Shown here one piece after another: positions 49,349-63,511 of a DNA stretch of 64,000 nt (position 1 is its first letter; each line of letters begins with the position of its first letter). This DNA is from Lachnospiraceae bacterium. Lineage in GTDB: Bacteria; Bacillota; Clostridia; Lachnospirales; Lachnospiraceae. The stretch covers positions 1 through 64,000 of the forward strand of contig JAFUZJ010000053.1 in the NCBI GenBank assembly GCA_017476665.1, written 5' to 3'. The position numbers and the translations under genes were made by a program. The notes below the pieces were generated by a model that saw only the letters and a list, made by a program, of their open reading frames with translations, ran no database searches and was not told where the DNA came from.

Positions 49349-50044
49349 CTATATGACAGATTCTCTATGATAATCCGTTACATCCGACTTCAGTTTCCCG
49401 TAAATATTTTCCACAGACGTTCTATCTGATAAGCTCTTTAGTTCCGCATCCGTCATTCCGATTAACTCCAGAAACTCAACCCGGCCATTTGGCGTAGAAA
49501 TTGTTTCCACGGATGGGTCTTTTATGGTGATAAATCCTGTAAGATTTGATTTCTGATTTGCATCAATCCCGGTGGTCTGTCCGGTATAAATGAATTCATT
49601 CGGTCGGAATACCTCCCCTGCCGTAAAAGTAATTCTGGCGACTGTTTGCAGAATTCCACAAATATTCTTGATCTCTGCTTCCTCATTTTCATATTCATCT
49701 TTTTTTAACTTAAATGTAAGCTCATAACCGTAACCGCTTATGTCAAGGTTCTCGCTTTCTTTTCCGTATATTTCGGTTAAGCCAAAAGAAACAAAATGCC
49801 AATAGTCGCCGCCATCGTAAACACTGATCCCATCCAGAGGATCATTTCCCCCAAAGATCCACTTGAGCAATGTCCCATAGTGTTTCGGATTATCCTGATC
49901 CGGGTAAACTCGCAGAAATTCCTTCTCAATTGCTTCCCAGCCTACAGCCTCTACATTCTCGTCATCAGGCGCACTAATTACTATCTTCTCTTCTTTCTGT
50001 TCTTTCTGCTCTTTCTCTTTCTTAAACTTATCAAATAATCCCAT
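49349..50044 (-). CDS. SUFU (suppressor of fused)-domain protein
   Basis: 231 residues. A Lys/Glu-rich leader (MGLFDKFKKEKEQKEQKEEK) is followed by a SUFU-like domain (about 35-215): GWEAIEKEFLRVYPDQDNPKHYGTLLKWIFGGNDPLDGISVYDG, then YWHFVSFGLTEIYG, and GYELTFKLKKDEYENEE. SUFU proteins in bacteria are established members of immunity-protein sets associated with polymorphic toxins. GGAGGAG precedes the start. No toxin gene adjoins it here, which fits an orphan immunity gene. Confidence 0.88.
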   Translation of the reverse strand: MGLFDKFKKEKEQKEQKEEKIVISAPDDENVEAVGWEAIEKEFLRVYPDQDNPKHYGTLLKWIFGGNDPLDGISVYDGGDYWHFVSFGLTEIYGKESENLDISGYGYELTFKLKKDEYENEEAEIKNICGILQTVARITFTAGEVFRPNEFIYTGQTTGIDANQKSNLTGFITIKDPSVETISTPNGRVEFLELIGMTDAELKSLSDRTSVENIYGKLKSDVTDYHRESVI

Positions 50045-52050: not shown

Positions 52051-54402
52051 TCAATCCACCTTATCCAGCCACACAAGCCCCGGATAGGTATGTTCCGCAA
52101 CCGTTCCCACGGCCGACGCGAACTTCGCCGCCTCGCGGATATTGTAGTCCGTCTCCTTTATGAAATAGCTGTAGAAACCGCCCAGGATCAGCGACTGTGC
52201 ATACTCCTCCCAGGAAGAAAATGCCTCCTTGCACCAATCAAACGCAAATACATACGTCTCAAACAATTCTGTATTGGTGAGCAGGTCTGCAGCATACATC
52301 ATTCGCGCCATTCCCACCACCTCATTCAGATCCCAAGCAAGCAGCCCTGCCTTCGGAAACAGTTCTATCACTTCACTGACATAACGCACATTCATATCCC
52401 AATAATTTCTCGTCCCTGCATCCAATTCATCCGGTTTGACATCGCTCTTGCCGTCCAAATATCTTATAGCCGCCTCCGCCACACGTGCGATCTGTGTCTG
52501 ACCAAAATGATTTTGCAGGCTCTTCAGATCCGTGATTCCGTATATGTCCGCAAAATATTTTCTGACCGCTTCCTTCTCTTCTTCCTTTTCCAATCTGTAT
52601 GCGCTGACATCAGGATCAAGCTCCTGACGAAAAGGACCGTTCTGCAAAATCGTCCTCATGACGCCCATTCTGGTATATGCCTGTAATTCACTTATCTTCA
52701 CCTGTTGTGCACCGGCACATGCCTGATGAAGCTTCTCAATCTGGTCTGCCAACATTTTACGGGCAGCAGCCATGTCCTTTGCCACATACCCCATACTGTC
52801 CTCGATCATTTGTGGCAGATCAAATTTGGACACGCTCTCCGGCCAGACTTCCATAGCCTGCCTAAAACACTCCACCGCCTTGCCTTCGCAATGGGTATTG
52901 TCAAAAATATATCCCAGCATATAGAACCATCGCGCCCTGTCCTCCGGACTCTTGCAGCGGGCATTTAACGCGCCCAGCTCTCTTCTTGCGTCGTTATAGC
53001 GTGACAGATTATTCAGCGCACTGATCTTGCGAAAATATATTTTATTACTCCTGCGCTCCGGGGGTATCTCCGCAATCTTGTCAAGGATTTTGTCATACTC
53101 ATCGTTTTCATGCCACTGATCTAACAGTTCATAGATTTCGTCATCATCCTTGATCCAATTTTCCTCCTGAGCTACTTCTGCTGCCAAGCCTTCTGTTGTC
53201 AAGCCTTCTGTCGACACGCTTTCTGCCCCTGTATTCTGTGGCATGCCGCCTGCCGTCTCATCCTCCTCCGGCTGCTGCAGCTCTTCATATTCATACTCTC
53301 CGGCATCATTCAGAAAATAAGAGTGCCCCACCGGCTTGTCCAGTATCGTGATCAACTTCGGACAAATCTGACAAATGTACGCCAGATCCTCCACGCAGCA
53401 ATTGTCAGGATCGCTGGTGTACGCCTCGTCCTCCGAACCGTCAAACAAAATCCACCCGCTGTCCGTAGGTCCATGCTCCGGCTTGATCCGGTAGAGATAC
53501 CCTACCCTGCGCGTCTCAAATATTTTCCGAGAGGCAATACAATGTCTTGCCTTCGGCAGCCCGGTCATCATCCTGTCAAAATCCGCATCTGCCTTCTCCA
53601 GATCATCCGCATCCGCAAAGGGCACGATCAATTCACAGATCTCGCCCACCTCGTCATACCCCCAGAACATACTATAAAAGCCATCTCCGAAACCCGTGGA
53701 GAAAAAGGGCATCTGATAATCCGTCCCCGGCACAGTCCACGCCAGAAAATCTCCGCCCTCCCGCTGCCACTCGGGAAGTTTCTCATAGCTTGCGGCATAC
53801 AACGCCTGAAAATAATCGTCATAATGATTGCCATCAGGATTTTCGGCGTGCCACTTGTCGATAAATTGCTGATACGCTTTCAGCACCACCTCATCTGCAA
53901 ACGCCGCCGTCCCGGTATCCACCGGCACCCCCACGAGCTTGCGATGTGCAGCCTTCACCAGCTCATACCGCACCGGCTCTTTGTCCGTAATCTTCAACTG
54001 CGCGGTACAGATCCTGGAACCAAAATAGTTACTCCTATAGATTGATACATTGACCGGATATTCCCCCGGCGCCACGGTATCGGCAAGCACATCCTGCGCC
54101 GCTTCGTCCCGCCACAAATACGCCAACGGGTCACCCACGACCAGCCGCCCTGACGGGCAGGACGCCTTTCCCACAGTGACTACAAAGCGGTTGCCCTCTT
54201 TCACGAACTGCCTGCGGATCTTCGCAGGATCGACCTTGTCCTGACAGATGTATTTCCTGTTGTCCGCGAAGATCTCCTTCAAGCTCCTGGGAATGAAAAC
54301 TGCGCCTCCCGGTTGCTGTTCTTTCTTTTCTGTTCCCTTTTCTGTTTCCTGTTTTGTCTCCTGCGCTTTAGTCTGTTTTTTCAATTTGTCTAATAACCCC
54401 AT
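52051..54402 (-). CDS. Multi-domain DUF4241-DUF2185-TPR-DUF1266 protein
   Basis: 783 residues, apparently a fusion of several predicted immunity domains. After a K/E/Q-rich leader (MGLLDKLKKQTKAQETKQ), a DUF4241-like region (about 45-290) has LVVGDPLAYLW and GEYPVNVSIYR, then FFSTGFGDGFYSMFWGYD. A DUF2185-like region (about 305-375) has VGYLYRIKPEHGPTDSGWILFDGSEDEAYTSDPDNC. A TPR section (about 415-600) precedes a DUF1266-like C-terminus (about 670-760: LLAWDLNEVVGMARMMYAADLLTNTELFETYVFAF, then SSWEEYAQSLILGGFYSYF). GGGAGGG precedes the start. No catalytic residues are evident. The names rest on motif memory. Confidence 0.75.
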   Translation of the reverse strand: MGLLDKLKKQTKAQETKQETEKGTEKKEQQPGGAVFIPRSLKEIFADNRKYICQDKVDPAKIRRQFVKEGNRFVVTVGKASCPSGRLVVGDPLAYLWRDEAAQDVLADTVAPGEYPVNVSIYRSNYFGSRICTAQLKITDKEPVRYELVKAAHRKLVGVPVDTGTAAFADEVVLKAYQQFIDKWHAENPDGNHYDDYFQALYAASYEKLPEWQREGGDFLAWTVPGTDYQMPFFSTGFGDGFYSMFWGYDEVGEICELIVPFADADDLEKADADFDRMMTGLPKARHCIASRKIFETRRVGYLYRIKPEHGPTDSGWILFDGSEDEAYTSDPDNCCVEDLAYICQICPKLITILDKPVGHSYFLNDAGEYEYEELQQPEEDETAGGMPQNTGAESVSTEGLTTEGLAAEVAQEENWIKDDDEIYELLDQWHENDEYDKILDKIAEIPPERRSNKIYFRKISALNNLSRYNDARRELGALNARCKSPEDRARWFYMLGYIFDNTHCEGKAVECFRQAMEVWPESVSKFDLPQMIEDSMGYVAKDMAAARKMLADQIEKLHQACAGAQQVKISELQAYTRMGVMRTILQNGPFRQELDPDVSAYRLEKEEEKEAVRKYFADIYGITDLKSLQNHFGQTQIARVAEAAIRYLDGKSDVKPDELDAGTRNYWDMNVRYVSEVIELFPKAGLLAWDLNEVVGMARMMYAADLLTNTELFETYVFAFDWCKEAFSSWEEYAQSLILGGFYSYFIKETDYNIREAAKFASAVGTVAEHTYPGLVWLDKVD

Positions 54403-54424: not shown

Positions 54425-54931
54425 TTACAAATTTTTCAGCATCTCATAAATTGAAATAAGATCCGAATCCGCCGCCCCTTGCAGCCGTCTTCCGACACGG
54501 TTATACAAAAAGGCGTTTGTTCCTTTGACATTGACACCATATCCCAGATTGGAGCTGATAAATCCGCCGCCTATGTTCTTCCAGATCACAACACTCAAAA
54601 AACCTGTCGCTTTCTTCACTATATCATTGAAAAAATCCTCCGAAACCGGCTGTTGTTGAAAATGCTTCGCCAGACTGATCAGAAGATTGTCCAGCGTCGG
54701 GATTACCCCCTCGTCAAAGTCAATCGTGACATGGGCAATCTGCTGAATCAGGCCAATAAAATCAATGGCGTATCCCAACATCATAAATTCACCGTTTAAA
54801 AACGATTTATCGCCTTCAGAAATCTTTTGTGCCTGCTCGTCGTAGAAAGCAACCAAATCTTCTACTGTTTTGGAGTAGTCAATTTTACATTCCTCCACAT
54901 CACTGACTTTGATTTCAAAATTTTCTCCCAT
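54425..54931 (-). CDS. Hypothetical protein
   Basis: 168 residues from the ATG at 54931, chosen for GGAGGT 7 nt upstream. Mostly helical first half (YSKTVEDLVAFYDEQAQKISEGDKSFLNGEFMMLGYAIDFIGLIQQIAHVTIDFDEG) and a C-terminal stretch GYGVNVKGTNAFLYNRVGRRLQGAADSDLISIYEMLKNL. Soluble, acidic, no signal peptide. No family recognised. It lies 22 bp upstream of the 783-residue protein and probably shares its transcript. Confidence 0.6.
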   Translation of the reverse strand: MGENFEIKVSDVEECKIDYSKTVEDLVAFYDEQAQKISEGDKSFLNGEFMMLGYAIDFIGLIQQIAHVTIDFDEGVIPTLDNLLISLAKHFQQQPVSEDFFNDIVKKATGFLSVVIWKNIGGGFISSNLGYGVNVKGTNAFLYNRVGRRLQGAADSDLISIYEMLKNL

Positions 54932-54959
54932 TTGAGTTACCTCCATAATTCTTACATTA

Positions 54960-56074
54960 TTACGTCAACGCCAACTGCTTTCTATGCAACAGAAAATCCA
55001 CAATGTTCATATGCACTATCCCGTTATGGCTTAAGTCGATGCGATCCAACGACAGCACGTATTTCGGCGATGCGTCCGTGATAGGGGAGAACGCTCCGAA
55101 TTCACGGTCGATGGTGCTTTGTGACGCTAACAGGTACGCCACCTGGATAAAGCATTTTTTCCCGTCTTTGATTGCCACGAAATCCACCTCCGACTTATAG
55201 GTTTTTCCCGTGAACACAGTGAAACCCTGCACCAGGAGCTCATTGTAGATCATGTTCTCCAGAAAAAAGGTGTCCTCGTAGTTGATGGTGTTAGTATTGA
55301 TCGTGCGCAGCCCCATATCCGTGGCGTAATATTTCTCCCTGTTTCCCAGAGATGCCTTGCCAACCAGATTATACCGGGTCACTCCATGCAGCAGGTATGC
55401 CTTCTTCATTTTGTCAAGGTAATTGTAGATCGTCCTCGAAGAAATCTCTTTTCCTGCATTTTGACTGTAGTATTCCGCAATATTGTCGGCAGAAAATTCT
55501 TTTCCCGAATTGGCAAGGATATAGAGCGAAATGTCCTTAAACACTTTCTTGTCAATCCTGGTATTTTTCTTGATAATATCGCGGTTGATAATGCCTTCAT
55601 ACAAATTGGAAATATATCGTTTGACAGATGCCTCGTCAGAAAAATCAAATCGCAGCGGAAACCCGCCCCATTTCAGATAATCGTAGATCAAATCCTCGGA
55701 AAATGGTCTGTTGTTCAATTCGTAAAATTCTTTCATCTCACAAAAGGAAAAAGGTAAAATCTCAAATTCCACTGTCCGTCCGGTCAAAAGCGTCGCAAGC
55801 TCACTCGACAGCAAAGTGGAATTGCTTTGTCCCGAATCCGACCCTTGATGTCTTCGTTCAGATCATCTGCTGTCTCAATGTAATCGTAGTCCATATCCTC
55901 CAGATTCAGATAGATCACATGATCTTCTCTCACGCTGTTTTCCACCAGTTCATCTCTAATTGTTTCCAACAAAATAGACTTACCGGCACGGCGCACACCG
56001 GTGATCATCTTGATCAGATCCACCTCATAATAAGGCCTGATCTGCTGTAAATAAGTTTCTCTTTTTAATCTCAT
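54960..56074 (-). pseudogene. AAA+ ATPase with DUF4143, copy 3, broken by an internal deletion
   Basis: Two adjoining frames. The N-terminal piece (55784-56074) has Walker A (MITGVRRAGKSILLETIRDEL) and ends after KGRIRDK in unrelated residues. The C-terminal piece, in another frame, resumes at SNSTLLSSELATLLTGRTVEFEILPFSF and runs through DUF4143 (KSEVDFVAIKDGKKCFIQVAYLL) to 54960. The stretch that should carry Walker B (the FxDEIQ region), about 35-45 residues, is missing at the junction near 55818-55832. The loss of both frame and Walker B makes it a non-functional remnant. GGAGGTGG precedes the start at 56074. Confidence 0.85.
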
Positions 56075-56140
56075 GATGCCACCTCCACATTTCATAAATT
56101 AACATATTTTTTGTGTTTGTGCAACATGACCTTTCGCATT

Positions 56141-56842
56141 TTAAAAATTATGCCATTCCATCGGTCTCAGATCCGGTGTGAAATTCTCATAGTCGCTGCA
56201 GAAAAATTCATAGTCTCCATCCCAGTCATCCGAAAACTGCACTTCCATGCACGCCCCCTCAAAGCACATCCCCTCACTGCGAATGGCAGCAAACAGCTTT
56301 TCCAGGTCAAACATCGGCAAATGTGCCTTGAAAAAAGCGGTCATATCCACATTCAGATCAGCCATGCTTTGACTCTTGTTTTTATCATGTATGGCGTAGA
56401 CCAGATCACTGATTTCATGATAGAATGCATCTGTCCACTCGCCATCATATACAGACGCATCTGCTTCATCGTACCCCTCGGTCAGAACATTCCCCCGTTC
56501 CCAGAACGGATACTCCGTGTCCACCAGATTTTCCATCAGCATGTACAAAAAATAGTTTTTGAGCTGCTCATGATGTGCTATGACTGTTTGCTCCAGACCG
56601 TTGTAGTAGTCTGTCAGAATCGCTGCCGCCGCATCCCCGCCAAATTCTTTTCCCGCAAACAAACTCCGCAGCGGTTGGAGCCAATGGTAATCAAACGCTT
56701 TCTCGCCCTGCAGATCTTCCAACTCCAAATTGATCTCGATCGCTCCCACACCGAACTCTTTGTTTTCATATACGCCGATCACGCCCCAGTCAAAAGTACC
56801 TTTTGCCTCAAATCTTCCGCCCCTGTACCTTACTTCGATCAT
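56141..56842 (-). CDS. Hypothetical protein, acidic
   Basis: 233 residues, soluble, strongly acidic and aromatic-rich. A beta-rich start (RYRGGRFEAKGTFDWGVIGVYENKEFGVGAIEINLELEDLQ) is followed by a helical middle with FLYMLMENLVDTEYPFWERG, and the end is FSDDWDGDYEFFCSDYENFTPDL. No family recognised, no catalytic motif. Low isoelectric character and small size fit the predicted-immunity look of the neighbours. GGAGGG precedes the start. It lies between the Sel1 protein and the broken ATPase. Confidence 0.6.
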   Translation of the reverse strand: MIEVRYRGGRFEAKGTFDWGVIGVYENKEFGVGAIEINLELEDLQGEKAFDYHWLQPLRSLFAGKEFGGDAAAAILTDYYNGLEQTVIAHHEQLKNYFLYMLMENLVDTEYPFWERGNVLTEGYDEADASVYDGEWTDAFYHEISDLVYAIHDKNKSQSMADLNVDMTAFFKAHLPMFDLEKLFAAIRSEGMCFEGACMEVQFSDDWDGDYEFFCSDYENFTPDLRPMEWHNF

Positions 56843-56869: not shown

Positions 56870-58117
56870 TTATACGCGGGTCCACTTGCCGAACAGAGGC
56901 TTCTTATATTTTGCAAGCTCCGCCTTCGCCTCCGGAAGATTGTCCGCATCTTTTAAAAACCGGACTCCCTTTCCGATATCTTCCGCAACGCCCAGACCCT
57001 GTGCATAAATGACACCTAACATATAATTGGCTTCCGCATCGCGGTTTGTTTCCTGTTCAAAGCATTCGCGAGCCTTGCCATAGTCCTGCGGGGTTCCCCA
57101 TCCACGGAAATAACATTTTCCCAGCCAGCCGATCCGATTGGTGTTTTTATGTTCCTCTGCAGCTTTCAGCAAGGGAAATGCTTTTTCTCCATCCCGCTGT
57201 CTGTTGCCCAGGCCATCGCAATAAATATAGCCAAGCTGGGATTTTGCCCTATATTTAAAGCTCGTGTCCTCCACCTGTTGTACCGCTTTTTCATACCACT
57301 CCACAGCACGATCGATATCCTTGGAGACCTCCTTGCCATTCAGATACGCATAGCCCATGATCGCGCAGCACTCAAACTGCCCTCCCAGTGCCGCCTGCTC
57401 ATACCAGTGATATGCTTCCTTCATGTTTCCGGCATTTTCCACAATATTGCCATAGCCCCACTGTGCGTCGGGATGACCATGCTCCGCCGCATACTGAATA
57501 ACCTTCGGTACCCGTTCCGGCTGCGGTTCAACCCAACCATCGTTGCCTGTTTTATAAAAATTACACAAATTTCTGTATGCACTTAAATATCCGCCTGCCA
57601 TGGATTTCAGAAACCAATCCTCGCATTTCCACACATTTTCATGCAGATAGGTTGCAAAAGCCCTCTCGTCAGGAAAGTTTGCCACTGTCACCCCGTCAAT
57701 CTCCGGAAAATCCATCCAGAAATAGACATTCCCTATCGTATACTGACAATAGGGCTCCCCGGCCTCAGCCTTCTGCAGTATGATCCGAAAAGCTTCCTGA
57801 AAATTCACTTCCGGCATCGTTTTCCACAGCTCCTTCGTGAGACACCGCTTTGCCACCAACGTCCCCAGGGCACTCCCCTGCTCCAATGACTTGCGCATAG
57901 CCGCCACCATGGCGCTGTAATTTTCTTCAAAGTTATGACCGGTCCACATAAACTCATGACCGCCATAGCATCTGCCCAAAAGACAGCTGGCATCGCCGTC
58001 TCCTTCCTCCGACGCTTTTTTCAGTATCTCCATCGCTTCCGCGCCTTTCCCTGCGCGGAGATCATAGTACAGATACTGAAGTGCTGTCTCTGCTGCGTCG
58101 CTGAAAAATCTACCCAT
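56870..58117 (-). CDS. Sel1-repeat protein
   Basis: 415 residues of Sel1-like repeats (TPR relatives, 36-40 residues each, with the AxxxLGxxYxxGxGV pattern). Clear units: GHPDAQWGYGNIVENAGNMKEAYHWYEQAALGG, CCAIMGYAYLNGKEVSKDIDRAVEWYEKAVQQ, RIGWLGKCYFRGWGTPQDYGKARECFEQETN and EANYMLGVIYAQGLGVAEDIGKGVRFLKDA. No signal peptide, so cytoplasmic. GGGAGG precedes the start. A scaffold for protein interactions; its partner is unknown. It follows the membrane protein at 58132 by 14 bp. Confidence 0.85.
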   Translation of the reverse strand: MGRFFSDAAETALQYLYYDLRAGKGAEAMEILKKASEEGDGDASCLLGRCYGGHEFMWTGHNFEENYSAMVAAMRKSLEQGSALGTLVAKRCLTKELWKTMPEVNFQEAFRIILQKAEAGEPYCQYTIGNVYFWMDFPEIDGVTVANFPDERAFATYLHENVWKCEDWFLKSMAGGYLSAYRNLCNFYKTGNDGWVEPQPERVPKVIQYAAEHGHPDAQWGYGNIVENAGNMKEAYHWYEQAALGGQFECCAIMGYAYLNGKEVSKDIDRAVEWYEKAVQQVEDTSFKYRAKSQLGYIYCDGLGNRQRDGEKAFPLLKAAEEHKNTNRIGWLGKCYFRGWGTPQDYGKARECFEQETNRDAEANYMLGVIYAQGLGVAEDIGKGVRFLKDADNLPEAKAELAKYKKPLFGKWTRV

Positions 58118-58131
58118 AATATTTTCCTCCC

Positions 58132-58821
58132 TTATAAATACTGTTTTTCATTTGCCATTTTCTCTAATATCCTGCGCTGGTCGCCGGTCTGAAATAGAAT
58201 ATCCACCGCCTTGATCAACTGCTCATGCGTGATCAGATCCTGCGGGCGCGGTGTAAAGTTTCCGTAGGGGGTATAAAAAGAAATACGCGTCTCAGATTTG
58301 TCCACATTCGAATTGATCAGCTGATAGTACTCCCGCGCTGCGGCCTGGTTGTCCTGCGTAAACCAGACCTCCGCAACAAATTGTCCTTGGTAGCCATAGA
58401 ATTGAAAGAAACCATCCTTGGTGTTCAGGATCAGATGTTGTTCTCCGCCGTTATCAATGGCGGTAATGATATTTTTTACTTCCGTTGAAGAAGGGTTTTC
58501 CTTAGTCATACCCGATGCGGTTTCCATATTGATCACCGCGCCTGGCACATCGCCTTTTTTGATTTTAACCGTATAAAAGGTACCGATCACGCCCGCAAGC
58601 AGTCCCACCCCCATCAGCACATAGAAGATTCCCGTCCACAGCATGCCTGTGCTCCCATCCGCTTCCGTAAAATACCCTTTGACCAAGCAGCATCCCATAA
58701 AAAGGAAAAAGCAGCTTACAGGAAAGCCCATGCCCCAGAACATGCCCCAGCTTCGACGTTTCTGTGGCACCAGCCCCCACAAAAGCTGCATCCTGTCCTC
58801 TGTGAATATTTCGTTTGCCAT
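58132..58821 (-). CDS. Two-helix membrane protein, first gene of the island
   Basis: 229 residues. Two membrane helices near the N-terminus (about 25-50 and 60-85: FPVSCFFLFMGCCLVKGYF and GIFYVLMGVGLLAGVIGTFYTV) are followed by a cytoplasmic domain of about 140 residues (VKNIITAIDNGGEQHLILNTKDGFFQFYGYQGQFVAEVWFTQDNQAA). No family recognised. The start follows GGGGGA. Its promoter region (58855-58918) carries a LytTR-type direct repeat identical in layout to that of the regulator operon, so it is the best candidate target of that system. Confidence 0.65.
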   Translation of the reverse strand: MANEIFTEDRMQLLWGLVPQKRRSWGMFWGMGFPVSCFFLFMGCCLVKGYFTEADGSTGMLWTGIFYVLMGVGLLAGVIGTFYTVKIKKGDVPGAVINMETASGMTKENPSSTEVKNIITAIDNGGEQHLILNTKDGFFQFYGYQGQFVAEVWFTQDNQAAAREYYQLINSNVDKSETRISFYTPYGNFTPRPQDLITHEQLIKAVDILFQTGDQRRILEKMANEKQYL

Positions 58822-58854: not shown

Positions 58855-58918
58855 AGTATACCAGAAACAGATTTAGTATACATTTTTTTAACTGAATCGC
58901 ATGATTTTTTTACTGAAT
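58855..58918 (-). promoter_or_regulatory. LytTR-type direct repeat and promoter of the 58.8 kb gene
   Basis: ATTCAGT at 58912-58918 and 58891-58897 (minus strand) are 21 bp apart, each followed by an A-rich run. A TATACT -10 box (58855-58860) begins 37 bp after the start of the second repeat. No good -35 is present, as expected of an activator-dependent promoter. It overlaps the end of the kinase gene. Confidence 0.7.
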
Positions 58919-61018
58919 TTCAGACAGGATATTTTGATCGATCTCCTCAGTCCAATCCACAACAGAATCTCCCTCTTTGCGCAGCGCAGGGTAACCTTTG
59001 TCAAAGGAGAACGTCCATGCCAGTCTGCCCGAAGCATCCTCCATGGCGATCTCCGTCACAAAATAACGATCCTCCAGCCATTTCAGTCCTGTTTTCTCAT
59101 AGGTATAGTATTCCTCATGGCTGTCAGAGAAGTATAAGCATCCTCCCTCTGGTGTATCCAGAGAAAATTCTCCCAAATAGGCATCATCAATGACATATAC
59201 ATAGGTCGCTGAAAGCCGCCCTGCTGAATCATATTGATATACATACAGCCCGCCGTCGCCCTCCTGTGCATCAATATTCAGCATATATGCCGGAGAGTCC
59301 TCCGCCGTGTTGTAAAAATAAAATTGATACCTGTTTTCCGACTGTCGCGGACGCAGTGGCTGCGTGAGCGCCTCGTCATAGAAATTTTCCCGATACTTAT
59401 CTGCCAGACGTTCTTTGATCAGGCGCGGCGTATTGTCATCGATCTCCTTGACACGCCCTTTGTCATCGAAATACGCCTGATAGATCAACTGTGCCACGTT
59501 ATCCTGTATGGAATATCCTCTGGTTTTGCGCCCCTGCGCATCATAGTCGTAAATAAATTGGTGTTCTTCACCATAATAGTCTGTCTCCGTGATATGGGCA
59601 CGCCTGAGCTCTGCGTCCCAATCACACGTCATGTCCTCATTTTTCTGCGCGGCAAGCACCTCCTGCGGTATGCCGTCCGCATTGCCTGTGTTGTCCGCCT
59701 GCGGCTCATAATCTATTTCTTCATACAACTGGGGCTCCAGATCGGCCCCGTATTGCTTGTAGGACCGGTAAGACACTGCCTGCCCGGTTTCATTATAAGT
59801 CCAATATTCCTGTAAACGTCTGCGATATCCATCAAAGTTCCAATATTCTTTTCCCAGCTTCACCAGAACTCCCCTGTCCGTACTGCTGTCGTTCCAGCGA
59901 GGGATGTAAGTATCGCGGGCAATATGATTTCCCTGTGCATCATAGGTTTCATATTGAATCTTTGCCAGTGCTACGGATGTCGGGAAAAAACTGCACGGAT
60001 GCCAGAAGCTTTCATCCGGCCGCTCAAGCTCCTGTTCCCCTTCCGGTGCTTCGCCCACATCATACAGGGTAAAAGGTCTGGATACGGACACCTGTGTCCC
60101 AGCCTGCATATCACTCGCCTGCGCATCGTTCGCAGGTATATCGCTCACCTCTGCAATATATGTTTCGTCCTGCGGTAAATCCTGAGACAATCCCTGATCT
60201 TTCGACGGTACAATAACGAAAATAAGCAGGCTCATAGCCACCGCAATACCTGCTATGCCTGCATACATTCCAAATCCTATCAATCTCTCCGTCTTCTCAA
60301 GTGAATATTCTTCACCTATATCCTGCCGCACTGACTCCCCGGCAGACTCTGTTTCCTCCGGCGGTTTCAGATACAGCATGAAGAACACTTCATTGTCCCC
60401 GTCCGTCTCCTGGTTGCCGTAGGCGATATCCGCCCTGCCGTCCGCGCAGATCTCCCGGGCATGTGCGAGTCCCAATCCTCTGCCCATACCCTTGCTGGTA
60501 TGTCCTGCACGAAACCAGCTATGCATGGTCTCATAGGGTACATAAGGAAAACGATTGGCCACGGTGATCCGGTACTGTCCGTCCTCCCTATCCACCAGGA
60601 TGCGTATGTTCCGCTCATCCCCCGGCCTGGACAATTCCGCATCAATGGCATTGTCCAGCAGACCGCCTACTATGGCGATCAAGTCATGCTGTGGAAGCGC
60701 ATAGGCCTCAAGCCTTGCAGATATATGGCTCTCCACACGGATTCCCTGAGCCTCAGCCTCCTTACATTTCTGATAAAGCAGTCCCGCAAGCAACGGATCC
60801 CCGCACAATAAGAGTACATTGTAACGCTGATCTCGGTTTAACTCCTCCAGATACTGCGATGCCTCCCCGGAAGAAAGCGTTTTCGCCGCGCTTAGTTGAT
60901 TTCCCAATTCGTGCTGACGCATGCGCACTTCCCGCACCAACTGCTCATATTGTTCCTTTGCCTCCTGCGTCAATCTGTCGGATTGCGGATTGGCATCTGC
61001 CTGTCGCTGTTTACTCAT
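58910..61018 (-). CDS. GHKL histidine kinase with kinase-first topology and outer YD-like domain
   Basis: 702 residues from the ATG at 61018, which overlaps the regulator stop (ATGAGTAA). Kinase region first: a His motif (EVRMRQHELGNQLSAAKTL, His36), N box (LLDNAIDAE, 122-128) and G box (SKGMGRGLGLAHAREIC, 176-188), an AgrC/GHKL-type ATPase. One membrane helix follows (about 246-270), then about 430 outer residues. The outer part has repeated Tyr/Asp/Gly segments resembling YD repeats: YETYDAQGNHI, YNETGQAV, YDYDAQGRKTRGYS, YQYDSAGRLSATYVY. Most kinases of this family have their membrane part first. It forms a pair with the LytTR regulator. Confidence 0.85.
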   Translation of the reverse strand: MSKQRQADANPQSDRLTQEAKEQYEQLVREVRMRQHELGNQLSAAKTLSSGEASQYLEELNRDQRYNVLLLCGDPLLAGLLYQKCKEAEAQGIRVESHISARLEAYALPQHDLIAIVGGLLDNAIDAELSRPGDERNIRILVDREDGQYRITVANRFPYVPYETMHSWFRAGHTSKGMGRGLGLAHAREICADGRADIAYGNQETDGDNEVFFMLYLKPPEETESAGESVRQDIGEEYSLEKTERLIGFGMYAGIAGIAVAMSLLIFVIVPSKDQGLSQDLPQDETYIAEVSDIPANDAQASDMQAGTQVSVSRPFTLYDVGEAPEGEQELERPDESFWHPCSFFPTSVALAKIQYETYDAQGNHIARDTYIPRWNDSSTDRGVLVKLGKEYWNFDGYRRRLQEYWTYNETGQAVSYRSYKQYGADLEPQLYEEIDYEPQADNTGNADGIPQEVLAAQKNEDMTCDWDAELRRAHITETDYYGEEHQFIYDYDAQGRKTRGYSIQDNVAQLIYQAYFDDKGRVKEIDDNTPRLIKERLADKYRENFYDEALTQPLRPRQSENRYQFYFYNTAEDSPAYMLNIDAQEGDGGLYVYQYDSAGRLSATYVYVIDDAYLGEFSLDTPEGGCLYFSDSHEEYYTYEKTGLKWLEDRYFVTEIAMEDASGRLAWTFSFDKGYPALRKEGDSVVDWTEEIDQNILSEIQ

Positions 61019-61748
61019 TTTCTCTGCTCCCGAACGTTTCCCTGATCGCCGACACATAGGTTCCGCCTATCTCCACAGGATTCTCCTCCCCCTGTAAGCA
61101 GACTCTTCTTCGCGGAAGATCAAGGGAAACCACAAATTTCCGGTTGATGACCGTATTGCGGCTGCATTGAATAAAATCATGACTGTCCGCATCCATAAGA
61201 AATTGTTTCACCGTCAGATACGGAATTGCAATATTGTCCTTTTTACGTGTAAAAATATGAAGTGCATGCCGTATACTCTTGGCATAAACCACATCCTCGC
61301 GCTGCACCACAACGATCGCGCCATCTTTCCGATAGTAGAGTGTACGCTCCCGCTCCGGCAGTCTGGGCGAGCGAAGACACTCCACGATCGTCTTGCGCAG
61401 ATGTTCCGCCACGAACGGCTTTTCAATGTATGCATAGCAATGAAGCTTTTCATAGCTGTATGACTTCAGATCCTCCAGACAGGTAAGGATAATCACCGGT
61501 GTAAATTCATATCGTGTGACGCCCCTGATACTCTCCACAAACTTCAGCCCCGATGTGTCCTCCTGCTGATCCGGTTTTAAGATCACATCAATAATGAAAA
61601 GGTCAATATTCCCCTCCAATGCGCATACATAGGCCTCTTTGGTGTCCGCACATCGGATCACTTCTGTAGGGCTCTCGATCGTATTGATGAGAGTCGCAAT
61701 TTCCTCCCGCTCCTCCGGGCGATCCTCCAATATCAGTATTTTTCGCAT
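61011..61748 (-). CDS. LytTR-family response regulator
   Basis: 245 residues. Receiver domain (about 1-120): LEDRPEEREE, phospho-acceptor in LFIIDVILKPD, and KPF. LytTR DNA-binding domain (about 138-240): YYRKDGAIVVVQREDVVYAKSIRHALHIFTRKKDNIAIPYLTVKQFL, then FIQCSRNTVINRKFVVSLD. AGGAGG precedes the start. Its promoter (61796-61801) has the same ATTCAGT direct repeat as the promoter of the 58.8 kb gene, so autoregulation is likely. It is translationally coupled to the downstream kinase gene. Confidence 0.93.
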   Translation of the reverse strand: MRKILILEDRPEEREEIATLINTIESPTEVIRCADTKEAYVCALEGNIDLFIIDVILKPDQQEDTSGLKFVESIRGVTRYEFTPVIILTCLEDLKSYSYEKLHCYAYIEKPFVAEHLRKTIVECLRSPRLPERERTLYYRKDGAIVVVQREDVVYAKSIRHALHIFTRKKDNIAIPYLTVKQFLMDADSHDFIQCSRNTVINRKFVVSLDLPRRRVCLQGEENPVEIGGTYVSAIRETFGSRENE

Positions 61749-61795
61749 CGTCTTTCCTCCTGCTGTTATGCCATGACAAACATAGTCATATCAGA

Positions 61796-61859
61796 AGTAT
61801 ATCAGAACTAATTTGGAAAATCGGATTTTTTACTGAATGATATTATTTTTTTACTGAAT
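61796..61859 (-). promoter_or_regulatory. LytTR-type direct repeat and promoter of the regulator operon
   Basis: ATTCAGT at 61853-61859 and 61832-61838 (minus strand), 21 bp apart, both followed by A-runs. TATACT (61796-61801) begins 37 bp after the start of the second repeat, as at 58.9 kb. The repeat overlaps the end of the BlaR1 gene. Confidence 0.7.
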
Positions 61860-63086
61860 TTGCCCTTTGAATTTTACGCCTTCCTCTATCAATGCCTCGG
61901 CCACCTCATCACGGATCTGCTTTGTGTTCCCATAGGTTTCCAAAAAATAGGTTCCGTCTTCCACCTGGTAAATACAGGTATCCGGTGCCATAATATAGAC
62001 CTCATCCATGTCGAAGACATCTCCGGGACCAGTTCCTATATTCAGATCATCCAGGTCAGGCAGAAAATAGGGCGCTATGACCAGGCTGTTAGCGATAAGT
62101 ACCATCATGAACGCAAATCCTGCCACCACAAGCCGCACTCCCCATGTGTATGTCTTCTGTCCCGGATCATTTTCCAACATGGCAAAACGACGCTTTAACT
62201 CTGAACGCAGCCCGTTTCCTGTTCCCAACAGACCCAGCCCGCGCCAGACGCCGCTTCTGTTGCGGCCGCGAAAAATAGTGAGGAGCGTTGTCATATAATC
62301 CGCGACCTCGTCTCTCTCCATACCGCGGATTACCTCACTGTCACAACGCATCTCCATGCTCTGTTCCACTTCTTTTTTCAAAAGGTAGATACAGGGATTC
62401 CACCAGTAGATCACACAGAGTAGGTCTGTCAAAAGGGCAAGATAATGATCTCCTTTTTCCAGATGGATCCTCTCATGCAGAATGATATACTTCAGCTCCT
62501 GTGCTGTATAAGGCTGATCCGGAATCAGGATTCGTTTACGTAACACACCAAAGCTGAACGGCACGGTAATTCCGGTACATCGATAAATCGTAATCTGCGA
62601 AGGCACCTCTATCCCCATCTGCTCCGACAATTCCTTGCGTGGGATCTGTCTGTGCGGAAGCTGTTTCAGCACTTGATCATTTCTCGCATATCCCACAGAA
62701 AGACAGATAAATTTCATCGCAATCCCTGCCAGCCAGATGAACAGCAGCATTTGTCCGATAGAAATCTCTGCAGAATCATAGGCAATGATTGTACGATGAA
62801 ATACCCGAAATATCTGATTCAGCGCATAAGGTATCACAATATGCTTCTGCCATGTGGCGCTGACCGGTATGAGCAACTGAATGATGCATAGATAATACAA
62901 AACAAGCATTCCTCTCACACCTACAACTTCTTTAAATTTTTTACTCCGCCACAGGAGGGAATAGAACAAAATCAGAAGACTGCCCCAAAATAAGCAGGAA
63001 ATGATCGACCATACGCTGACGTGCGAGTTTCCACTCATAAGCCTGATGAAAAACATAAAAATGCCATAGCAATTTTCCTGGGGCAT
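61851..63086 (-). CDS. BlaR1/MecR1-like M56 metalloprotease sensor
   Basis: 411 residues. Four membrane helices frame a zinc metalloprotease domain: ILHERIHLEKGDHYLALLTDLLCVIYWWNPCIYLLKKEVEQSMEMRCD, where HERIH is the HExxH motif and the later Glu is the third ligand. The outer C-terminal part (about 110 residues) is much smaller than the penicillin-binding sensor domain of true BlaR1, so the signal sensed is probably different. It follows the BlaI-type repressor by 5 bp. No beta-lactamase is in the window. Confidence 0.88.
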   Translation of the reverse strand: MPQENCYGIFMFFIRLMSGNSHVSVWSIISCLFWGSLLILFYSLLWRSKKFKEVVGVRGMLVLYYLCIIQLLIPVSATWQKHIVIPYALNQIFRVFHRTIIAYDSAEISIGQMLLFIWLAGIAMKFICLSVGYARNDQVLKQLPHRQIPRKELSEQMGIEVPSQITIYRCTGITVPFSFGVLRKRILIPDQPYTAQELKYIILHERIHLEKGDHYLALLTDLLCVIYWWNPCIYLLKKEVEQSMEMRCDSEVIRGMERDEVADYMTTLLTIFRGRNRSGVWRGLGLLGTGNGLRSELKRRFAMLENDPGQKTYTWGVRLVVAGFAFMMVLIANSLVIAPYFLPDLDDLNIGTGPGDVFDMDEVYIMAPDTCIYQVEDGTYFLETYGNTKQIRDEVAEALIEEGVKFKGQIQ

Positions 63087-63091
63087 ATCGC

Positions 63092-63511
63092 TTATACCTC
63101 TCTGTTTCTAATGCGCTCAATCACCTTTTCCAGTTCTGCGATCAACTCCTCGTCCTTAGTTTCATTTGGCATGTCATCTCTATCATTGCCGATCATAGCA
63201 AGTACAAGACTTCCCAGAGATGATGTGCGGATTCCGCCGTTCGCCAGTACAATGGCCGCATACTGCTCTCTGGTGATCTGTGCCTCATATTTGCGCGCAT
63301 AAACCGTCCCCGACAGTTCCAGTCCTTCCACACCGATATAACCTTTCTGCAACAGAGACTGTACCGCTTTGAAGATTGACACCTTACTCATCTTTTCACC
63401 GGCAAATAACTCCTCCAGCTCTGTAACGCTTACGGAGTTCTTCACGTCCGTCTGCTCCCAGATTTTATCCATGATGCGCTGCTCGCGCTTGTCCATGATC
63501 TGCTTTTCCAT
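63092..63511 (-). CDS. BlaI/MecI-family repressor
   Basis: 139 residues. Winged-helix N-terminal domain (about 8-75: REQRIMDKIWEQTDVKNSVSVTELEELF, then MSKVSIFKAVQSLLQKGYIGVEG) and a helical C-terminal dimerisation part (NETKDEELIAELEKVIERIRNREV). It is normally cleaved or released by the partner protease just downstream. GGAG lies upstream of the start. A TATAGAATACTATA palindrome at 63560-63573 in its upstream region may be its operator. Confidence 0.85.
   Translation of the reverse strand: MEKQIMDKREQRIMDKIWEQTDVKNSVSVTELEELFAGEKMSKVSIFKAVQSLLQKGYIGVEGLELSGTVYARKYEAQITREQYAAIVLANGGIRTSSLGSLVLAMIGNDRDDMPNETKDEELIAELEKVIERIRNREV

What the first reader, a model, noticed from the sequence alone, without database searches (positions are those of the whole stretch)
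58855..61859. Two promoters with identical LytTR-type architecture
At 58.9 and 61.8 kb the minus strand has ATTCAGT, 21 bp, ATTCAGT, then exactly 37 bp to a TATACT -10 with no -35. A 21-bp direct repeat is the known spacing for LytTR proteins, and a LytTR regulator is encoded between the sites. The two-component system probably regulates itself and the first gene of the island, linking envelope sensing to the immunity-like genes.
Basis: partly seen in the sequence, partly recalled or inferred. Interest (0 to 1): 0.8.

Follow-up and report, generated by a model that had tools for sequence, protein, structure and literature searches.

The report
Rewired Agr-type switch for immunity genes
A bacterium related to gut Lachnospiraceae appears to use a cell-to-cell communication regulator, refitted with a back-to-front surface sensor, to switch on itself and gene clusters that look like protection against toxins of rival bacteria; this rests on sequence comparison only.

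Summary
Confirmed and extended. Two minus-strand promoters (58855-58918, 61796-61859) share ATTCAGT-N14-ATTCAGT-N30-TATACT with a TG-extended -10. The exact double box occurs at only these two places in the 3.64 Mb draft genome. Two different pattern searches (double box without -10; one box plus extended -10) return the same four sites, controls 0; the two extra sites head clusters with immunity-type genes on contig C59. A relative (regulator 98% identical) keeps both sites: 0/22 core changes, 3/31 and 7/31 elsewhere. In 138 genus genomes the motif is in 7 of 11 with the regulator and 3 of 127 without. In 8 of 9 distant genomes the regulator sits beside AgrB. Here no AgrB was found and the kinase is inverted: AgrC-type core, one helix, then a large C-terminal outside region. 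Best reading: an Agr-derived LytTR two-component system that regulates itself and polyimmunity-like clusters. Binding, activation, transcript length and signal are inferred; nothing was tested at the bench.

The parts
61832..61859 (-). Direct repeat ATTCAGT-N14-ATTCAGT (21-bp period, A-tract after each box) of the regulator gene's promoter; overlaps the stop of the M56 gene
61796..61804 (-). Extended -10, TGATATACT, 30 bp after box 2
61011..61748 (-). LytTR response regulator, 245 aa, AgrA-like
   Evidence: LytTR 3.7e-9, Response_reg 6.4e-9, both above cut-off; ten orthologues 39-98% identical
58910..61057 (-). Sensor kinase, 715 aa, inverted: AgrC-type core (about 34-231), single predicted helix 259-287, then a C-terminal region with YD-like motifs (motifs by script; no family match)
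   Evidence: open frame only 718 aa, so no N-terminal membrane part
58891..58918 (-). Direct repeat ATTCAGT-N14-ATTCAGT of the downstream operon's promoter; overlaps the stop of the kinase gene
58855..58863 (-). Extended -10, TGGTATACT, 30 bp after box 2
58132..58821 (-). First gene of the target operon, 229 aa, two predicted membrane helices, no family
56870..58117 (-). Sel1-repeat protein, 415 aa, 14 bp after the 229-aa gene; a homologue in L104 has its own promoter of this type
56141..56842 (-). 233-aa protein without a family, 27 bp after the Sel1 gene
54425..54946 (-). 173-aa protein without a family, colinear
52051..54402 (-). 783-aa protein with DUF4241, Imm33 and DUF1266 domains (polyimmunity-type)
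   Evidence: Imm33 as an immunity domain in PMC3482391 (passages)
49349..50044 (-). SUFU-domain protein (immunity-type), further downstream; membership of the operon not shown

Best explanation
The two promoters are binding and activation sites of the LytTR response regulator encoded at 61011-61748. Inferred mechanism: a signal outside the cell acts on the C-terminal region of the inverted kinase (58910-61057); its cytoplasmic AgrC-type core phosphorylates the regulator; the regulator binds the two ATTCAGT boxes on one face of the DNA (21 bp apart) and helps RNA polymerase at an extended -10 promoter that lacks a -35. This raises the system's own expression and turns on four promoters in all: its own, the 229-aa/Sel1 operon that runs on towards an Imm33/DUF4241/DUF1266 gene, and two promoters on contig C59 heading clusters with DUF4261, UPF0167, DUF4303, SUKH and NADAR genes. 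The system probably descends from an Agr quorum-sensing locus that lost AgrB and AgrD and exchanged the AgrC sensor but kept the DNA box. Shown by sequence: architecture, rarity, conservation, co-occurrence, domain order. Inferred: binding, phosphotransfer, activation, transcript length, signal, protective role, and the direction of the evolutionary change.
For: Rarity: exact double box 2 hits, control 0; relaxed double box at up to 3 mismatches 4 hits, control 0; one box plus extended -10 at up to 2 mismatches the same 4, control 0. The two C59 sites were found without using the -10, yet have TGCTATACT and TGGTACAAT exactly 30 bp after box 2. Relative G063 (regulator 98%, kinase 90%): both sites kept; 0/22 core changes at each, A-tract 0/11 and 1/11, elsewhere 3/31 and 7/31. 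Genus, 138 genomes: motif in 7 of 11 with the regulator (E<=1e-50) and 3 of 127 without, Fisher p 2.3e-7; without own and G063 5 of 9 against 3 of 127, p 1.8e-5. All six hits in the five distant genomes lie within 4.3 kb of the regulator (positions). Profile on 79 loci not used for training: 16 exceed the maximum of 120 shuffled strands (20 of the 79 loci, three shuffles each), against 1 for mirrored sequence; box spacing peaks at 21 (14 loci above score 18, at most 4 at any other spacing from 14 to 31; above 15: 20, next best 10) and -10 distance at 30 (6 of 24 sites, at most 2 at any other distance from 20 to 42). L104 (regulator 64%) has the inverted kinase, ATTCAGT-N30-TATAAT before the regulator and ATTCGGA-N30-TATAAT before the Sel1 gene. 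Agr background: AgrB near the regulator in 8 of 9 distant genomes, none in G000 or G063; AgrD-like LFGEYP ORFs at the end of AgrB in 3 of 5 loci examined.
Against: No binding or expression data. Four of 11 regulator genomes (G103, G068, G077, G010) have no hit at up to 3 mismatches, and three genomes without it have one, none of these with a clear -10. Of the six hits in distant genomes only two (G042 at 31 bp, G092 minus strand at 29 bp) have a clear TG-extended -10; G104 and the other G092 hit are weak, G058 and G016 have none. Fisher tests treat related genomes as independent. In L104 the regulator promoter has lost the left box, the Sel1 promoter lacks the TG, and the whole genome gives 0 hits to the double-box pattern. 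10 of the 20 genomes given to lack AgrB, so its absence is not special; G068 has the regulator but no AgrB. The first genes of the window operon and of the second C59 cluster have no family. The genome is a draft in 72 contigs.
Confidence: 0.8

Rival explanations
1. The sites belong to another regulator of the genome and the neighbour is only coincidentally placed.
For: The genome has two other weak matches to the regulator (C30, C9), so other regulators exist.
Against: Motif presence tracks orthologues of this regulator across 138 genomes, and hits in distant genomes lie within 4.3 kb of it.
Confidence: 0.06
2. The regulator represses these promoters, or its phosphorylated and unphosphorylated forms act oppositely.
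For: Sequence cannot give the sign of the effect; box 2 lies only 30 bp before the -10, nearer than the positions reported for AgrA (repeat centre about -60) and RgaR (G at -51).
Against: Boxes lie upstream of the -10, and the missing -35 calls for an activator; LytTR promoters with 9-bp repeats, 12-bp gaps and extended -10s are described as auto-activated (PMC6193735, passages).
Confidence: 0.08
3. The two promoters are alike because one was copied from the other recently.
For: Both lie at the 3' end of a gene and share ATT CAG TAA at its stop.
Against: 19 of 31 non-motif positions differ between the two in this genome and 15 of 31 in G063, core 0 of 22; the two C59 sites share the geometry.
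Confidence: 0.03
4. The sites are real, but the regulon has nothing to do with immunity; the target genes serve envelope or general stress.
For: The first controlled gene here is an unknown two-helix protein followed by a Sel1 protein; M56 and BlaI-like genes lie upstream. In the other family loci the sites face AgrB (3 of 18), Xre-type genes (6 of 18) or other genes.
Against: Three of the four promoters head gene rows that contain Imm33, SUKH, DUF4303 or DUF4261 genes.
Confidence: 0.25

Closest known systems
Agr quorum sensing (AgrA/AgrC with AgrB/AgrD); related Clostridia systems RgaSR and VirSR
   Same: LytTR regulator and AgrC-type kinase core; paired direct repeats 21 bp apart (RgaR needs G residues at -51 and -72; PMC10602386, passages); 8 of 9 distant orthologues of this regulator sit beside AgrB
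   Different: No AgrB found in this genome; kinase without N-terminal helices and with a C-terminal outside region; box 2 lies closer to the promoter; targets are immunity-like clusters
LytTR Regulatory Systems (HdrRM, BrsRM)
   Same: 9-bp direct repeats mostly with 12-bp gaps, autoregulation, extended -10 in several (PMC6193735, passages)
   Different: Those regulators lack a receiver domain and pair with a membrane protein; here a true two-component pair, and the box reads ATTCAGT
Polyimmunity loci and polyimmunity proteins of polymorphic toxin systems
   Same: Tandem unrelated immunity-type domains (Imm33, SuFu, SUKH), described in PMC3482391 (passages)
   Different: Here they appear tied into one regulon by a dedicated two-component system; I did not see this described in the listings (open-access full text only)

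Membership tests
LytTR-regulated promoter | Two direct repeats with about 21-bp period | tested here: met
   spacing scan peaks at 21
LytTR-regulated promoter | Repeats at a fixed distance upstream of a weak or -35-less promoter | tested here: met
   30 bp to an extended -10 at the four own sites; peak at 30 in 79 loci
LytTR-regulated promoter | Binding by the LytTR protein | not testable with these tools
   Co-occurrence only
LytTR response regulator | Receiver plus LytTR domain | tested here: met
   both above Pfam cut-offs
AgrA in the strict (NCBIfam equivalog) sense | Score above the curated cut-off | tested here: not met
   26.6 bits, cut-off 400
AgrC-type kinase | GHKL core with AgrC-like phospho-acceptor region | tested here: met
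   HATPase_c_5/GHKL 31.4 bits, cut-off 22; H49, N53, D135, N136, G194, G196 invariant with six AgrC-like kinases and G063
AgrC-type kinase | Multi-helix N-terminal sensor | tested here: not met
   Single helix 259-287, after the core; in the family loci 63 ORFs have helices before the core and 3 the inverted order
Agr quorum-sensing locus | AgrB and AgrD | tested here: not met
   0 AgrB matches in G000 (97% complete) and G063 (69% complete); AgrD was not searched for in these two
Polyimmunity locus | Tandem immunity-type genes without a toxin | tested here: inconclusive
   Imm33/DUF4241/DUF1266 and SUFU in the window, two SUKH genes and others on C59; toxins not systematically searched

The most novel reading that the evidence does not exclude
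An Agr quorum-sensing system has been converted into an attack or contact sensor: the AgrC core was turned round so that it hangs inside on one membrane helix with a large C-terminal YD-motif region outside, AgrB and AgrD were lost, and the unchanged DNA box now switches on polyimmunity clusters when the outside region is engaged or cut, for example by a rival's toxin or by envelope damage. This would be an inducible, regulated form of orphan immunity.
Probability: 0.3. Interest if true: 0.85.

Novelty: new variant of a known kind. Interest (0 to 1): 0.62.

Why it matters
Polyimmunity loci are described as reservoirs of immunity proteins (PMC3482391, passages). A dedicated two-component regulon for them would mean that some bacteria sense attack and raise these defences. 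The inverted kinase shows an AgrC-type core conserved with its sensor at the other end, and the preserved DNA box gives a direct way to test how sensor swaps evolve. The regulon found is small (four promoters), so one deletion strain and one gel shift would settle it.

Tried and rejected
Chance repeats: rejected. Recent duplication of one promoter: disfavoured. Single ATTCAGT as the signal: not enriched. A missed N-terminal membrane part of the kinase: excluded by the 718-aa open frame; same order in G063 and L104. Relatives of the outside region: 1 of 397 sampled family genomes, the own one (the sample is partial, since G063 and L104 also have it); no Pfam or NCBIfam match for that region; no PDB sequence at E<=1. 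A fourth script hit for an inverted kinase (L127) rests on a 14-residue partial match and was dropped; five further ORFs had no helix on either side. One search used a pattern one base too long between box and -10 (my error): it matched two places, control 1, one of them the 58.9-kb site through its first box; repeated correctly. Literature: inverted histidine kinases and two-component control of immunity loci: nothing seen in the listings, none of those papers opened. DUF4261 was not looked up in PMC3482391; of that paper 300,000 of 357,715 characters are held. A link of CbrC/UPF0167 to colicin tolerance under CreBC is recalled; one search gave listings only.

Full report
OBSERVATION. The two sites are as described. 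On the minus strand, ATTCAGT-N14-ATTCAGT lies at 58891-58918 and 61832-61859; with TATACT 30 bp after the second box the full elements are 58855-58918 and 61796-61859, 0 mismatches. I see no -35 and the sigma-70 scan lists neither site; both have TG one base before the -10 (TGGTATACT, TGATATACT), so they are extended -10 promoters. Single ATTCAGT is as frequent as expected. In the window alone the double box at up to 2 mismatches is only mildly enriched (3 hits, 0.65 expected, 3 of 100 shuffles reach 3), but the exact double box occurs nowhere else in the 3,635,727-base draft genome (2 hits, control 0).

REGULON IN THE OWN GENOME. Two searches that use different parts of the element converge. 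The double box with A-tracts, without the -10, at up to 3 mismatches gives 4 hits, control 0. One box plus extended -10 at up to 2 mismatches gives the same 4 places, control 0. The two new ones are on contig C59 at 50222 and 56986. Both have a TG-extended -10 exactly 30 bp after box 2 (TGCTATACT, TGGTACAAT), which one search did not ask for. The first heads genes with DUF4261, UPF0167 and DUF4303 domains; the second heads a 138-aa gene without a family, then, after about 760 bp, a SUKH gene, with another SUKH gene and a NADAR gene further on. In the window the 58.9-kb site heads a colinear row (gaps 14, 27, 45, 13 and 22 bp from the coordinates): a 229-aa two-helix protein, a Sel1 protein, a 233-aa protein, an AAA_14/DUF4143 gene that lies in two overlapping ORFs, a 173-aa protein and a 783-aa DUF4241-Imm33-DUF1266 protein; a SUFU gene lies further on. 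SUKH, SuFu and Imm33 are described as immunity domains that form polyimmunity loci (PMC3482391, passages read). DUF4303, DUF1266, NADAR and UPF0167 are not named in the held part of that paper, and its listing shows 0 for DUF4241. So 'immunity-like' is firm for some genes and loose for others.

COMPARATIVE TEST. Across the 138 genomes of the genus the pattern gives 15 hits in 10 genomes, the reversed control 1 hit. The regulator (E<=1e-50) is in 11 of 138; two weaker matches, G040 and G019, were counted as without. The motif is in 7 of the 11 and in 3 of the other 127 (Fisher p 2.3e-7); leaving out the own genome and G063, 5 of 9 against 3 of 127 (p 1.8e-5). The test treats related genomes as independent. 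In the five distant genomes (G042, G092, G104, G058, G016) all six hits are on the regulator's contig within 4.3 kb. Against this: G103, G068, G077 and G010 have the regulator but no hit; G083, G116 and G118 have a hit but no regulator, though none of these three hits has a clear -10. Of the six distant hits only two have a clear TG-extended -10 (G042 at 31 bp, G092 minus strand at 29 bp); two are weak and G058 and G016 have none.

A profile from the own four and the two G063 sites was applied to 79 regulator-family loci that were not used for training. 16 of 79 exceed the maximum of 120 shuffled strands (20 of the 79 loci, three shuffles, two strands); mirrored real sequence gives 1 of 79. 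The spacing between boxes peaks at 21: 14 loci above score 18, at most 4 at any other spacing from 14 to 31; above score 15, 20 loci at 21, next best 10 at 26. Of 24 sites with two good boxes, 6 have a good -10 at 30 bp and at most 2 at any other distance from 20 to 42. This is what a conserved LytTR promoter should show.

In G063 (its contig has the length of record UBA3821) both sites are kept. Core positions changed 0 of 22 at each site, A-tracts 0 and 1 of 11, other positions 3 and 7 of 31. In L104 (regulator 64% identical, a sheep-rumen assembly) the regulator promoter keeps the right box and TGCTATAAT at 30 bp but has lost the left box; the Sel1 homologue, which there lies between regulator and kinase, has ATCCGGC-N14-ATTCGGA-N30-TATAAT, without the TG. 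The whole L104 genome gives 0 hits to the double-box pattern at up to 3 mismatches.

THE KINASE AND ITS ORIGIN. The core of the 715-aa kinase aligns with six AgrC-like kinases of distant loci, with phospho-acceptor and ATP-site residues kept. In 80 family loci plus the window, 72 ORFs in 61 loci match the core: 63 have helices before it (median 6), 3 are truly inverted (window, G063's record, L104), one further hit is a partial-match artefact and 5 have no helix. Here the core comes first, one helix follows at 259-287, and about 430 residues with five YD-like motifs lie beyond it (hydropathy and motif script); no Pfam or NCBIfam family covers that part. The frame is open for only 718 codons, so an N-terminal membrane part is excluded. 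The basic residues before the helix fit an inside N-terminus (inference). That outside region was found in 1 of 397 sampled family genomes, the own one, and has no PDB sequence match at E<=1.

AgrB lies near the regulator in 8 of 9 distant genomes (not G068) and was not found in G000 or G063 (G063 is only 69% complete, and 10 of the 20 genomes searched lack AgrB). Small ORFs with an LFGEYP motif, AgrD-like by my judgement, lie at the end of AgrB in 3 of 5 loci examined (L036, L037, L078; not L038, L076). Of 18 sites examined in family loci, 3 face AgrB, 6 an Xre-type gene, 2 the regulator and Sel1 genes of L104, 6 other genes and 1 none. So the regulator and its box come from an Agr background, while the sensor side differs; that it was replaced, rather than the reverse, is inferred from the rarity of the inverted form.

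MECHANISM AND LIMITS. Most likely the kinase senses something outside, phosphorylates the regulator, and the regulator binds the double box to start transcription at a -35-less extended -10 promoter, with positive feedback. Described systems fit: LytTR repeats of 9 bp with mostly 12-bp gaps and several extended -10s (PMC6193735, passages), AgrA on two direct repeats upstream of P2 and P3 (PMC4227749, passages), RgaR with needed G residues 21 bp apart (PMC10602386, passages). A difference: box 2 lies nearer the promoter here than in AgrA (about -60) or RgaR (-51). Not shown: binding, sign of the effect, transcript length, signal, any protective effect.

VERDICT. The system is a new variant of a known kind: LytTR/Agr-type control with an inverted kinase and a small regulon centred on immunity-like clusters.

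Noticed in passing
window 58910-61057: Inverted histidine kinase: AgrC-type core at the N-terminus, one helix, large C-terminal region with YD-like motifs; same order in L074 and L104.
   Followed up: yes
window 61851-63086 and 63092-63511: M56 (BlaR1-type) gene and a BlaI-like gene (20.6 bits, below the Pfam cut-off of 22.6) directly upstream of the regulator, in the same order in L074.
   Followed up: no
window 58910-58918 and 61851-61859: Both genes upstream of the promoters end in Ile-Gln-stop because box 1 supplies ATT CAG TAA; the same in G063.
   Followed up: partly
window 54960-56095: AAA_14/DUF4143 gene lies in two overlapping ORFs (54960-55814, 55784-56095), apparently broken; described only.
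   Followed up: no
L013, L014, L015, upstream of their regulator genes: Other LytTR-type regulator genes of the genus carry a different 21-bp direct repeat (around AAACGACA) before a TATACT- or TATAAT-like -10.
   Followed up: no
L106 (record titled Gastranaerophilales): Carries a regulator locus of this family with a double box and TGGCATAAT; possibly a mis-binned Lachnospiraceae contig.
   Followed up: no
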